Shown here piece after piece: positions 16,321 to 44,904 of a stretch of DNA of 64,000 bases. Location: positions 434,001 through 498,000 of the forward strand of contig NZ_JABBXA010000003.1 of NCBI RefSeq assembly GCF_014161445.1, written 5' to 3'. The notes beneath the pieces are model-generated. The model was not told the origin of the DNA and did no database searches. It was given only the letters and a program-made list of their open reading frames with translations. Position numbers and translations under genes: made by a program. The stretch is from Microbispora sp. H13382. Its GTDB lineage: Bacteria; Actinomycetota; Actinomycetes; Streptosporangiales; Streptosporangiaceae. Within the stretch, counting starts at the first letter, position 1; each line of letters opens with the position of its first letter.

Positions 16321-16560
16321 GTGTCCAATCCTTTCGACGATCCCGCTGGTCGGTTTTTTGTCGTGGTCAACGACGAAGGTCAGCACTCGCTCTGGCCGGC
16401 GTCCGGCAATGTGCCGGCTGGTTGGACGATTGTTCACGGGGCGGCCGACCGTTCTTCCTGCCTGGAATACATCAACGCCAACTGGACGGACATGCGGCCG
16501 CGCAGTCTGGTGGCGTACCTGGACCAGGTGGCTCCGCCTGGGCAGGAGGCGACTCGATGA
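16321..16560 (+). CDS. MbtH-like NRPS accessory protein
   Basis: A 79-residue MbtH-family protein, a chaperone that binds NRPS adenylation domains and aids their folding and activity. The signature is NDEGQHSLWPASGNVPAGW with the conserved Trp residues, and SCLEYINANWTDMRPRSL near the end. GTG 16321 (MSNPFDDPAG) matches the family start; AAGGGG is 9 nt upstream. Its stop overlaps the ATG of NRPS-1 (ATGA). It is the first gene of the cluster and the only MbtH copy, so it probably serves all six A domains. Confidence 0.97.
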   Translation: MSNPFDDPAGRFFVVVNDEGQHSLWPASGNVPAGWTIVHGAADRSSCLEYINANWTDMRPRSLVAYLDQVAPPGQEATR

Positions 16561-19500
16561 CCTCGGAAGCGAGCGCGGGCGCGACCGGCGTCGGGCAGGC
16601 CGGAGGGGACGAGAGGGCCGCCGCGGAGGCACGCCTGGAGTCCATGTCCGAGGCCAAGCGGCTGCTGTTCGAGAAGCGTCTCGTCCGGCGGCGTGCCGAG
16701 AACGACGACACCATCGTCCCCGTGCCGCGGACGGAGGCGCTCCCGCTCTCGTCCGCGCAGCGGCGCTTGTGGTTCATGGACCAGCTCAGCCCGGGCAGCG
16801 CGATGTTCAACGTGTCCGTGGCGCTCCGCTTCTCGGGGCCGCTGCGGCTCGACCTGCTGGCTCAGTCGGTACGGCGCCTCTTCCTCAGGCATGAGGCGCT
16901 GCGGACCGTCTTCACCGCGGCGGACGGCGAGCCGGTGCAGCGGATCCGGCCGGACGTCGAGGTGGACCTCACTCCCGTTCCGCTCCCCTGCGCGGGACCC
17001 GGCGACGCCGATCTCGAACCGGTCCTGCGGGAGGCGGCGGCGCGGCCGTTCTCGCTGGAGCGGGGGCCGCTGGCGCGCGCGCAGGTCTTCGGCCGCGATC
17101 CCGCCGACCACGTCCTTCTCCTGACCGTGCATCACAGCGTGTGCGACGGATGGTCGATGAGCGTCCTGGTCGACGAGCTGCTCGAGCTCTACTCCGCCGC
17201 TGTGGCGGGACGCGAGGCGAGCCTGAAGCCGCTCCCCCTCCAGTACGCCGACTACGCCGCCTGGGAGGCCCGTCCGGAGCGGGCGGCCGAACTGGCTGAC
17301 GGGCTCGCATACTGGCGTCACAAGCTGGACGGCGCGATCCCGGTCATCGAGCTTCCGCTCGACCGTCCGCGCCCGTCCGCCCAGAGCTTCCGTGGCGCCC
17401 GCCACCGGTTCACCCTGCCCACGCGGATCTGGCCGGCGGTCAAGGAGCTCGCGCGCGAGGAGCGGGTGACCCCGTTCATGGTGCTGCTCGCCGGGTTCGC
17501 GGCGCTGCTGTCGCGCTACTCGGGACAGGGCGAGATCTCGGTGTCGACGCCGGTGGCCAACCGGCCGCGCGTCGAGCTGGAAACCATGGTCGGCTTCTTC
17601 GCGAACTCGATCGTGCTGCGGATCGACACCTCGGGCGCCCCGACCTTCCGCGAGCTGGCGCGCCGTGTGCGCGAGGTCGCGCAGGAAGGGATCGCGCACA
17701 GCGCCGTGCCGTTCGACGCGGTGGTGGAGGCGGTCGATCCGCCGCGCAGCCTGAGCCACGCGCCACTGGCGCAGGTGCTGTTCGCGTTGGTGGACAACCC
17801 GGGGCTGGACGTCACGGCGGGCGACCTGCGCGTCACGACCGTCGACCACCACACCGGAACGGCGAAGTACGACCTGTCGCTGGAGCTCTGGCCGGACGCC
17901 GACGGCGTGCTGCACGGTGTCCTCGAGTACGCCGCCGATCTGTTCGAACCGGCCACCGTCGCCGACACGGCCGCGCACCTCGGCACCCTGCTCGACAGCC
18001 TCACCCACGCCCCGGACGGCACCATCGCGGACGCCCGCCTGCTGTCCGATGAGGAACTGCGCGAGATCGTCGTCGACTGGAACCGCACCGACGACCCGCT
18101 CCTGGGCGAGACGTACGCGCACGAACTGTTCGAACGGCAGGCGCGACGCACGCCGGACGCGCCCGCGCTGGTGTCGGGGGACCGAACGCTCACGTTCGCG
18201 GAGCTGAGCCGACGCGCCGACCGGCTGACTGCACGCCTGCGCGGCGCGGGCGTCAAGCCGGAGACGCGGATCGGCCTGTTCCTCGAGCGCGACGTCGAGC
18301 TGGTGGTCGCGGTGCTTGCCGCGCTGAAGGCCGGCGGCACGTACGTGCCGCTCGACGTGAGCGACCCGGCCGAGCGCGTGGCGTTCATGCTGGCCGACGC
18401 CGACACCCAGATCGTGATCACCACCCGCGCCCGCCGGGAGTCGCTGCCGGAGACCGGCGCGCACGTGCTCCTGGCCGACGACGACCGGCCCGACCGGCCC
18501 GACCAGCCGGAGCAGCCGGTGCCGCAGGAGCACGCGGAGCAGGCCCAGGACCCCCGGCCGCACCCGGAGAGCGCGAGCTACATCATCTACACCTCCGGCT
18601 CGACGGGCAGGCCCAAGGGTGCCGTCGTCACGCACCGGGGCCTCACCAACTATCTCGCCTGGGCGCTGACCTTCTACCGCGTCGCCGACGGCGGCGGCGC
18701 GCCGCTCGTCTCGCCGCTGCGCTTCGACCTGTCCGTGACCACGCTGTTCTGCCCGCTGCTGGCCGGCCGCCCGGTGGTGCTCGTCCGCGAAGGCGAGGAA
18801 CTGGACATGCTCGCCAAGTCGCTCGGCGCGGACCGGCTCGAATTCGGCCTGGTGAAGCTGACCCCGGCCCACCTGGAGGCGTTGGACAAGGCGCTTCCCC
18901 CGGCCACCGTCGAGGCGGAGGGTTACCTGGTCGCCGGCGGCGAGAGCCTGCACGGCAGCACCGTCGCCGCCTGGCGCGAGCGCGCGCCCGGGCTGCGCGT
19001 GGTCAACGAGTACGGTCCCACCGAGACCGTCGTCGGCTGCTGCGTCCACGAGGTGGACGAGCACACCGACCTGTCCGGGACCGTCCCCATCGGCCGGCCC
19101 ATCGCCAACACCCGGTTGTACGTCCTCGACGCGAACCTGGCGCCTGTCCCACGCGGCGCGGTCGGAGAGCTGTACGTCGGCGGTGCCGGCGTGGCACGCG
19201 GCTACCGGAACCGGCCCGACCTGACCGCCGAGCGCTTCCTGCCCGACCCGTTCTCCACCACGCCGGGCGCCCGCCTCTACCGCACCGGTGACCTCGCCAG
19301 GATGCGCGCCGACGGCGAGCTGGAATGCCTCGGCCGCGTCGACACCCAGGTCAAGGTCCGCGGCTACCGCGTCGAACTGGAGGAGATCGAGGCCACGCTG
19401 ACCCGGCTGGACGCGGTACGCGAAGCGGTCGTGCTGCTGCGGAAAGACCTGCCGGGCGAGGCCAGGCTGGTCGCGTACGTCACCACGACCGCGACCGGCA

Positions 19501-44095: not shown

Positions 44096-44904
44096 GCCAC
44101 ACCGCATCCCGGACGACGCGCGCCCACGGCTGGATCGTGGGCGCCGCGCCCCGCCGTCCCGCCCCGGCCATCCGGCTGCTCTGCCTGCCGTACGCGGGCG
44201 GCGCCGCCTCGTCCTACGCGAGCTGGCAGAACGCCTTCGCCGATGACGTCGAGGTGTGCCCCGTCGAGCTGCCCGGCCGCCAGACCCGCTGGCACGAGCG
44301 GCCCTTCACTCGCCTCGAACCGCTCGTCGAGGCGCTGGCCTCGGCGCTGGCCGGCGAACTCGACGTGCCGTACGCCCTGTTCGGGCACAGCATGGGCGCG
44401 CTGGTGGCGTTCGAGCTGGCCCGCGAGCTGCGCCGGCGCGGCGCCGCCGGGCCGCGCGTACTGTTCGCCTCCGGCGGTGCCGCCCCCCAACTCCGGCGGG
44501 AGCGGCCAGGGATCCACGATCAGCCGGAAGACGTCGTGATCGCACGGCTGCGGTCCATGGGCGGCCTGCCCGAGGAGGTCATCGCCGAGCCCGAACTGCT
44601 CGAACTCCTCGTGCCGGCCATCCGCGCGGACTTCGCGGTCTGCGAGACGTACGCGTACCGGCCCGAGCCGCCGCTCACGTGCCCCATCTTCGCCTTCGCC
44701 GGCACGGAGGACCAGGAGGTGCCCGCCGAGCGGGTCTCTCCCTGGCAGGAGCAGACATCGGCCACCTTCCTGCACCAGGTGCTTCCCGGCGGCCACTTCT
44801 TCCTGCGCACGGCCCAGCCCGCACTCCTGAACACGGTACGAACCGGGCTGACGGCCGCCCTCGCGAGAATCCATCGTGGGGCCACACCGGAGAACGCTCT
44901 CTGA
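44092..44904 (+). CDS. Type II thioesterase
   Basis: A 270-residue alpha/beta hydrolase of the RifR/GrsT group, which removes wrong acyl groups from carrier domains. The nucleophile is Ser100 in GHSMGA, with Asp207 in GTEDQEVP and His235 in PGGHFFL as the likely rest of the triad. CLPYAGGAASSYASW near the N-terminus is typical of the family. GTG 44092 overlaps the stop of the hybrid gene (GTGA). It is the last cluster gene. With no thioesterase domain in any synthetase it might help in release, though editing is the known role. Its last residues and stop lie over an integrase-like scar. Confidence 0.94.
   Translation: MSHTASRTTRAHGWIVGAAPRRPAPAIRLLCLPYAGGAASSYASWQNAFADDVEVCPVELPGRQTRWHERPFTRLEPLVEALASALAGELDVPYALFGHSMGALVAFELARELRRRGAAGPRVLFASGGAAPQLRRERPGIHDQPEDVVIARLRSMGGLPEEVIAEPELLELLVPAIRADFAVCETYAYRPEPPLTCPIFAFAGTEDQEVPAERVSPWQEQTSATFLHQVLPGGHFFLRTAQPALLNTVRTGLTAALARIHRGATPENAL

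What the first reader, a model, noticed from the sequence alone, without database searches (positions are those of the whole stretch)
16321..44904. Unassigned NRPS-PKS cluster: Ser-X-X-malonate-Cys(thiazoline)-Asn-X
Seen: three megasynthases with six A domains, one KS-AT and one Cy, plus MbtH, dioxygenase, small unknown protein, exporter and type II thioesterase. Only NRPS-2 starts with A-T, and only NRPS-1 starts with a C domain that can take a chain, so the order must be NRPS-2, hybrid, NRPS-1, against gene order. Codes by hand: DVWHFSLVEK (Ser), DAFLFGATIK, DVENVVAITK, malonyl AT, DLYNLSLIWK (Cys), DLTKVGEVGK (Asn), SSRDLAMGIK. I know no product with Ser, a beta-keto C2 unit, thiazoline and Asn in this order; bleomycin-type lines share some units but differ in architecture.
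Basis: partly seen in the sequence, partly recalled or inferred. Interest (0 to 1): 0.78.

Follow-up and report, generated by a model that had tools for sequence, protein, structure and literature searches.

The report
Unassigned NRPS-PKS cluster, odd ending
This is a bacterial assembly line for an unknown sulfur-containing peptide-polyketide, shared with a few Streptomyces, whose last domain looks like an epimerase that has lost its catalytic residue and may finish or release the product in an unusual way.

Summary
Window 16321-44904 carries an eight-gene NRPS-PKS cluster: MbtH, NRPS1, TauD, DUF6817, ABC exporter, NRPS2, KS-AT-T-Cy-A-T hybrid, type II TE; six A domains, one malonyl AT, one Cy.

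Corrections: the third NRPS2 code is DVENVGAITK, and NRPS1 ends in an epimerase-family domain (E*) whose catalytic Glu is Val in 5 of 5 copies (8 of 8 aligned comparison E domains keep Glu).

The order NRPS2, hybrid, NRPS1 is supported by relatives: 3 of 392 sampled Streptomyces genomes share the gene set, and S. pseudovenezuelae has a C-A(Asp)-T-TE protein in place of NRPS1. The Ser loading module is in the window only. No KR is recognised in the window's hybrid or in two relatives tested, so the C2 unit should stay a beta-ketone. TauD beside Asp modules in relatives points to beta-hydroxy-Asn. The Cy keeps both Asps and the Thr/Asp dyad, but the Ser of DxxxxDxxS is Ala in all five family members, so a thiazoline is likely, not certain. 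A caerulomycin-type pyridine is disfavoured.

The last unit (SSRDLAMGIK) and release are open. I found no product in my paper searches. New variant of a known kind.

The parts
16321..16560 (+). MbtH-like protein (GTG start)
   Evidence: PF03621 90.4 bits at 16324-16476; sequence
16557..24380 (+). NRPS1: C-A(Asn)-T-C-A(SSRDLAMGIK)-T-E*
18144..19637 (+). NRPS1 A1, code DLTKVGEVGK (Asn-type)
   Evidence: code meaning recalled
21336..22781 (+). NRPS1 A2, code SSRDLAMGIK, no Asp at 235; identical code in 4 of 4 clusters that have NRPS1
23064..24377 (+). E*: epimerase-family terminal domain, HHQLMDN, catalytic Glu of EGHGRE replaced by Val (VGRGRE)
   Evidence: phmmer to PDB E domains, alignment, tree
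24373..25356 (+). TauD-family Fe/2-oxoglutarate dioxygenase (HNE motif), predicted Asn/Asp beta-hydroxylase
   Evidence: PF02668 2.6e-49; PDB relatives 1y0z, 9yut; neighbours in relatives
25353..25922 (+). DUF6817 small protein, possibly HD-like helical fold, role unknown
   Evidence: PF20680 3.4e-28; model pLDDT 80; weak Foldseek hits
25934..29590 (+). fused ABC exporter (two TM and two ATPase stretches)
29587..37884 (+). NRPS2: A(Ser)-T-C-A(Val-like)-T-C-A(DVENVGAITK)-T
29752..31194 (+). NRPS2 A1, DVWHFSLVEK (Ser) loading module, absent from the four relatives compared
37874..44095 (+). Hybrid KS-AT(malonyl)-T-Cy-A(Cys)-T
40916..42193 (+). Cy domain; both Asps of DxxxxD and the VFTS / QTPQVWID-x-Q stretches kept, Ser of DxxxxDxxS replaced by Ala
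44092..44904 (+). type II thioesterase
   Evidence: PF00975 1.1e-48

Best explanation
A working NRPS-PKS line. NRPS2 loads Ser, then adds an aliphatic (Val-like) residue and a third residue (X2, code DVENVGAITK). The hybrid adds one malonyl unit that is not reduced, then Cys, which the Cy domain most likely closes to a thiazoline. NRPS1 adds Asn, which TauD hydroxylates at the beta carbon, and then a last unit chosen by an A domain that lacks the alpha-amine-binding Asp. There is no terminal TE; the E* domain, an epimerase relative without its catalytic Glu, handles the last step (release or final modification). The ABC protein exports the product and TEII edits mis-loaded carriers. Shown from sequence: genes, domains, active-site motifs, codes, conservation. 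Inferred: order of proteins, thiazoline, hydroxylation. Guessed: identity of X2 and the last unit, role of E* and DUF6817.
For: Domain content and motifs. Same eight genes in the same order at 55-82% identity in 3 of 392 genomes sampled from the genus of Streptomyces sp. 2131.1. Protein order: only NRPS2 starts A-T, and in S. pseudovenezuelae an Asp module with TE replaces NRPS1. In G527 and G620 the first A domain of NRPS1 is gutted and a separate C-A-T protein with the Asn-like code DMPKAGEVGK lies downstream, fitting a slot for Asn. No KR recognised in the window's hybrid; in 2 of 4 relatives tested the extra segment matches no meaningful Pfam family. Cy: Thr of VFTS and Asp and Gln of QTPQVWIDxQ, which I take to be the dyad and helper Gln of PMC9547227 (passages), are present in 5 of 5 family members. 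TauD lies directly beside Asp modules in Massilia and S. pseudovenezuelae. E* tracks the last module and the absence of TE, not TauD.
Against: The Ser of DxxxxDxxS is Ala in 5 of 5 family members but Ser in 6 of 6 other Cy domains aligned. Code-to-residue assignments are recalled rules; X2 and the last unit have none. Nothing shows that E* catalyses anything; TEII or plain hydrolysis could release the chain. DUF6817 is unexplained. Expression and product were not testable. Gene order on DNA is against the inferred protein order.
Confidence: 0.55

Rival explanations
1. The KS-AT-T-Cy-A(Cys)-T unit builds a pyridine ring, as in caerulomycin, collismycin and karnamicin, instead of a thiazoline.
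For: The caerulomycin PKS-NRPS CaeA2 also combines a malonyl PKS module with a Cy-A-PCP module for Cys, and its Cy resembles thiazoline-forming Cy domains (PMC8149447, passages). The Cy motif of our family is atypical.
Against: CaeA2 needs a Ct domain after the PCP and the trans flavoprotein CaeB1. Here the hybrid ends 68 residues after the carrier Ser, no room for such a domain, and none of the eight genes is a flavoprotein. I saw no flavoprotein among the shared genes of the relatives but did not annotate every gene there or search the genome for one.
Confidence: 0.12
2. The Cy domain joins Cys but does not close the ring, leaving a linear cysteinyl amide.
For: The Ser of DxxxxDxxS is Ala in 5 of 5 family members, Ser in 6 of 6 other Cy domains aligned.
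Against: The Thr, Asp and Gln stretches linked to cyclodehydration (PMC9547227, passages; mapping by me) are kept in 5 of 5.
Confidence: 0.15
3. E* is a recruitment platform (like the Ct domain of CaeA2, the X domain of glycopeptide NRPSs or the interface domain of siderophore NRPSs) that docks TauD or DUF6817, and has no catalytic role of its own.
For: Catalytic Glu lost in 5 of 5 copies while the domain stays conserved; the TauD gene lies directly downstream; a Ct domain that lacks the catalytic His is shown to recruit CaeB1 (PMC8149447, passages).
Against: TauD occurs without E* in S. pseudovenezuelae and in the Massilia locus, and DUF6817 occurs without E* in the Massilia locus. E* keeps HH and D of the active-site motif. 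The interface-domain paper (Reitz 2019) was not held, so its motifs were not compared.
Confidence: 0.3
4. The last NRPS1 module (A2-T-E*) is inactive and skipped; the chain ends with Asn and is freed by TEII or hydrolysis.
For: A2 lacks Asp235 and E* lacks its Glu; S. pseudovenezuelae stops after the Asp module.
Against: The code SSRDLAMGIK is identical in 4 of 4 clusters, Lys517 is kept, and the T domains are multiplied in the three relatives (2, 3 and 2+1 copies), which argues for use.
Confidence: 0.15
5. The product is a metal chelator (siderophore or other metallophore).
For: Predicted beta-hydroxy-Asn, thiazoline and beta-keto donors, and a fused ABC exporter, would suit metal binding (inference).
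Against: No match within 3 mismatches to recalled iron-box and zinc-box consensus patterns in the window; no hydroxamate or catecholate gene among the eight.
Confidence: 0.25

Closest known systems
Clusters in Streptomyces G527, G620 and G298 (G298 = Streptomyces sp. 2131.1 by record title), product unknown
   Same: All eight genes, same order, 55-82% identity; SSR code identical, Cys code identical or one letter off
   Different: No Ser loading module (truncated C remains); extra segment of roughly 330-360 aa in the hybrid; tandem T domains; G527 and G620 have a gutted first A domain in NRPS1 and a separate C-A-T protein
S. pseudovenezuelae DSM 40212 cluster (L127 + L023), product unknown
   Same: NRPS2 (66%), hybrid (72-75%), TEII (69%), MbtH (61%), TauD (49%)
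   Different: C-A(Asp)-T-TE instead of NRPS1; a transporter that looks MFS-like by eye and a stand-alone C domain; no close DUF6817 or E* in the genome, no SSR module seen
Massilia sp. CF038 cluster (L024), product unknown
   Same: KS-AT-T-Cy-A(Cys)-T hybrid at 46%, TauD 49%, DUF6817 30%
   Different: Hybrid is the first megasynthase in the locus; other A codes; no E* found in the locus
Caerulomycin/collismycin and karnamicin assembly lines (PMC8149447, PMC9838390; passages seen)
   Same: PKS-NRPS hybrid with a malonyl unit and Cys through a Cy domain (stated for caerulomycin and collismycin)
   Different: They make pyridines; caerulomycin uses a Ct domain and a trans flavoprotein, both missing here
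Bleomycin-type lines (recalled, not tested)
   Same: Ser, Asn, Cys and a PKS module in one line
   Different: Different order and architecture by memory

Membership tests
Hybrid NRPS-PKS biosynthetic cluster | C, A, T, KS and AT domains with core motifs in co-directional genes | tested here: met
Hybrid NRPS-PKS biosynthetic cluster | terminal release domain (TE, reductase or C) | tested here: not met
   No TE or reductase family in any of the three megasynthases; terminal domain is E-family
Thiazoline-forming Cy module | Cy fold with DxxxxD and Cys-specific A domain | tested here: met
   DGLITD, code DLYNLSLIWK, Cy branch 100/100 in tree
Thiazoline-forming Cy module | full DxxxxDxxS motif | tested here: not met
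   Ala in place of Ser in 5 of 5 family members; Ser in 6 of 6 other Cy domains aligned
Thiazoline-forming Cy module | Asp-Thr dyad and helper Gln | tested here: met
   VFTS and QTPQVWIDxQ in 5 of 5; roles from PMC9547227 passages; mapping by me
Caerulomycin-type pyridine line | Ct domain after the Cys carrier and trans flavoprotein gene | tested here: not met
   definition from PMC8149447 passages; genome outside the window not searched
Active NRPS epimerase | HHxxxDG and catalytic Glu in EGHGRE | tested here: not met
   HHQLMDN and Val in place of Glu in 5 of 5 E* copies; 8 of 8 aligned comparison E domains keep the Glu, though 2 of those 8 lack the Gly of HHxxxDG and 1 has Ala there
Epimerase family by descent | groups with E domains, not C or Cy | tested here: met
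   E plus E* on one branch 100/100, E* one group 100/100; PDB: PvdL E stretch 192.8 bits, GrsA 122.8, against 50.8 for the second PvdL stretch and 47.4 for TycC
Interface domain of siderophore NRPSs | shared motifs and branch with known interface domains | not testable with these tools
   Reitz 2019 not held; no reference sequence at hand
TauD/SyrP-like beta-hydroxylase | TauD family with HxE...H iron ligands | tested here: met
   PF02668 2.6e-49; HNE and distal His seen in sequence; activity not tested, SyrP likeness recalled
HD-domain metalloprotein (DUF6817) | H...HD...D ligands and HD fold | tested here: inconclusive
   H26, H34, H58 in 38 of 38 rows and D131 in 92% (rows include repeats of one gene), but no Asp after H58; best Foldseek E 0.17 to alarmone hydrolases, TmpB and PhnZ lower; HD_4 sub-cut-off hit for the Massilia copy

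The most novel reading that the evidence does not exclude
An epimerase that lost its catalytic Glu has been turned into the terminal domain of an assembly line, where it releases or cyclises the chain carried on one to three tandem carriers, with a last unit that is not a normal alpha-amino acid. That would be a new functional class of the condensation superfamily.
Probability: 0.25. Interest if true: 0.7.

Novelty: new variant of a known kind. Interest (0 to 1): 0.45.

Why it matters
The cluster predicts a scaffold (Ser, aliphatic residue, X2, beta-keto C2, thiazoline, beta-hydroxy-Asn, unusual last unit) for which I found no product. The conserved, catalytically broken E domain at the end of a line without TE gives a concrete place to look for a new release or recruitment mechanism, and the Ala-for-Ser change in a conserved Cy motif is a natural test of Cy chemistry. 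Five related clusters with module loss, gutting and duplication also make a small natural series of assembly-line evolution.

Tried and rejected
Product identification by code: of the codes and part-codes I searched, only DVENAGVV (the Ahp position of cyanopeptolin) was found in a paper; it resembles X2 in 7 of 10 letters but does not settle it. The Orn code DMENLGLINK is a recalled second neighbour.

Functional tie of DUF6817 to NRPS clusters in general: rejected. Of 31 short DUF6817 loci scanned (3.3-3.5 kb), 2 are the close relatives with TauD; of the other 29, 2 had a weak NRPS match and none had TauD.

DUF6817 as PhnZ/TmpB-type oxygenase paired with TauD: not supported beyond weak fold hits.

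E* as an active epimerase: rejected by motif. E* as TauD interface domain: weakened by TauD clusters without E*.

KR in relatives: the inserted segment looked KR-like in position, but Pfam shows nothing meaningful (2 of 4 relatives tested).

Siderophore regulation: no iron or zinc box. Plasmid collection, searched with NRPS1 A2-T-E* only: no record at 60% identity or more.

Rarity of E*: 0 of 395 other genomes of the phylum sample at E <= 1e-80 and 0 of 14 others of the genus at E <= 1e-70; the phylum search scored about 4 candidates a genome and could miss copies.

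Full report
What is there. The window (G000:C23:434001-498000 of an 8.71 Mb, 70-contig genome) holds a compact eight-gene cluster at 16321-44904, all on the plus strand, with overlapping or nearly touching genes. The order is MbtH, NRPS1, TauD, DUF6817, ABC exporter, NRPS2, hybrid PKS-NRPS, type II TE. Neighbouring genes look unrelated (the downstream ones by eye).

Domains and codes. By motif, NRPS1 is C-A-T-C-A-T-E*, NRPS2 is A-T-C-A-T-C-A-T and the hybrid is KS-AT-T-Cy-A-T (Cy read and aligned). 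Aligned codes: DVWHFSLVEK (Ser), DAFLFGATIK, DVENVGAITK, DLYNLSLIWK (Cys), DLTKVGEVGK (Asn) and SSRDLAMGIK. Code meanings are recalled. DAFLFGATIK is kept in G298 and appears as DAWLFGATIK (S. pseudovenezuelae), DALFLGGTFK (G527) and DALFFGATFK (G620), which look Val-like. DVENVGAITK is the same in the window, G298, G527 and G620 (DVENIGAITK in S. pseudovenezuelae) and resembles DVENAGVVTK of the Ahp position in cyanopeptolin (PMC2533009, Table 1 passage).

The Cy domain. The motif is DGLITDAWA. Both Asps are there, but the Ser of DxxxxDxxS is Ala in 5 of 5 family members (window, G298, G527, G620, S. pseudovenezuelae) and Ser in the 6 of 6 other Cy domains aligned (L024, L027 twice, L029, L034, L041). 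The stretches VFTS and QTPQVWIDxQ are kept in 5 of 5; I take these to hold the Asp-Thr dyad and helper Gln whose mutation hurts cyclodehydration (PMC9547227, passages). Thiazoline is therefore likely but not sure.

Relatives. A marker search with DUF6817 found three close copies (77-82%) in 392 genomes sampled from the genus of G298 (Streptomyces sp. 2131.1 by title), and none above 49% in the 296 other genomes of the window's family sample. The three carry the whole gene set in the same order. A capped genome-contig scan returned 78 loci; the two closest, at 75%, were S. pseudovenezuelae DSM 40212 (L023) and Streptomyces sp. 2131.1 (L025, the same genome as G298). Of the 78, 9 have a Cy domain at 41% or more to ours. 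S. pseudovenezuelae has MbtH, a stand-alone C domain, a transporter that looks MFS-like by eye, TauD (49%), C-A(Asp)-T-TE, NRPS2, hybrid and TEII; its genome has no close DUF6817 or E*. Massilia sp. CF038 has a 46% hybrid with DUF6817 (30%) and a C-A(Asp)-T protein directly before TauD (49%).

Order of proteins. Only NRPS2 begins with A-T and only NRPS1 begins with C. In S. pseudovenezuelae a TE-bearing Asp module takes the place of NRPS1, and in Nostoc L034 an A(Ser)-T-C-A(Gly)-T protein, a KS-AT-T-Cy-A(Cys)-T protein and a C-A-T protein with a TE-like motif follow one another. In G527 and G620 the first A domain of NRPS1 has lost about 145 profile positions, and a separate C-A-T protein with code DMPKAGEVGK lies downstream of TEII. 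These agree with NRPS2, hybrid, NRPS1.

What is special to the window. The Ser loading module is absent from all four relatives compared; their NRPS2 starts with the C-terminal half of a C domain, 34-42% identical to the matching half in the window. The likeliest history is loss of the loading module in the relatives, but a gain in the window is not excluded. The window's hybrid also lacks a segment (net roughly 330-360 residues) found between AT and T in all four relatives. In the two tested it matches no meaningful Pfam family, and the window's hybrid has no KR match, so the C2 unit should stay a ketone.

The terminal domain. The end of NRPS1 matches E domains in the PDB (PvdL 192.8 bits for its E stretch, TycA 164.9-168.3, GrsA 122.8) far better than C domains (50.8 bits for the second PvdL stretch, 47.4 for TycC; which of these are E or C is partly recalled). 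In a tree of 30 domains E and E* share a branch with 100/100 support, and E* forms one group at 100/100. All 5 E* copies (window, G298, G527, two in G620) read HHQLMDN and have Val where the catalytic Glu stands. The 8 of 8 comparison E domains aligned keep that Glu; they were the eight best-scoring E domains of the fetched loci, not a random sample, and the next four also show it in the motif listing. E* is preceded by one T in the window, two in G298 and three in G527, and G620 has T-T-E*-T-E*. E* occurs with the SSR module and without a TE; it does not follow TauD or DUF6817. I therefore favour a role in the last step over a TauD docking role, at modest confidence.

TauD and DUF6817. TauD has PDB relatives At3g21360 (1y0z) and 9yut, shows an HNE motif, and sits beside Asp modules in two other clusters, so beta-hydroxylation of Asn is likely. 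DUF6817 is modelled as helical with mean pLDDT 80 (3 sequences); Foldseek hits are weak (best E 0.17) and point to HD-type proteins: alarmone hydrolases first, then TmpB and PhnZ. The HD doublet Asp is missing. Its role is open.

Pyridine rival. Caerulomycin's CaeA2 also pairs a malonyl module with Cy-A(Cys)-PCP, but needs a Ct domain and a trans flavoprotein (PMC8149447, passages). Both are missing in this cluster, so thiazoline is favoured.

Known or not. Ten paper searches, seen as listings, showed no product that matches; one search listed 12 of 109 papers. MIBiG was not available, and subscription papers are mostly not held, so this is weak evidence of novelty. E* looks rare, with the caveat on how few candidates were scored.

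Noticed in passing
L024 (Massilia sp. CF038) 8693-27229: A separate KS-AT-T-Cy-A(Cys)-T cluster with MFS exporter, DUF6817, C-A(Asp)-T and TauD in a proteobacterium; DUF6817 and TauD co-occur across phyla.
   Followed up: partly
G527 and G620 clusters (L114-L117): First A domain of NRPS1 gutted in place, with a separate C-A-T protein (DMPKAGEVGK) and a second MbtH-like ORF downstream of TEII: apparent replacement of a module in trans.
   Followed up: partly
L115, L117, L118 (NRPS1 3' ends): Tandem T domains with the same core motif before E* (2 or 3), and in G620 a repeated T-E* unit.
   Followed up: partly
window 40916-42193 and four relatives: Ser of the Cy motif DxxxxDxxS is Ala in all five family members.
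   Followed up: partly
L064 (Thiomargarita MAG) ORF 653-9571: A related A domain without Asp235 (FGFSASVRQ...NMYGQTETTG) in a C-A-T-KS-AT context, so this A-domain type is not confined to the family.
   Followed up: partly
L027 (Nonomuraea sediminis), L029 (Actinomadura spongiicola): Longer KS-AT-T-Cy-A(Cys)-T proteins beside further Cy-A modules; possibly karnamicin- or caerulomycin-like pyridine lines.
   Followed up: no
L034 (Nostoc sp. ATCC 43529) 3630-22785: A Ser-Gly-malonyl-Cys-X line ending in a TE-like motif, with last code DVENIGAIGK close to X2 of the window.
   Followed up: no
window 14513-15469: Predicted ion channel (PF00520) just upstream of the cluster.
   Followed up: no
G000:C23:399769-399909: A second MbtH gene about 34 kb before the window, suggesting another NRPS cluster nearby.
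   Followed up: no
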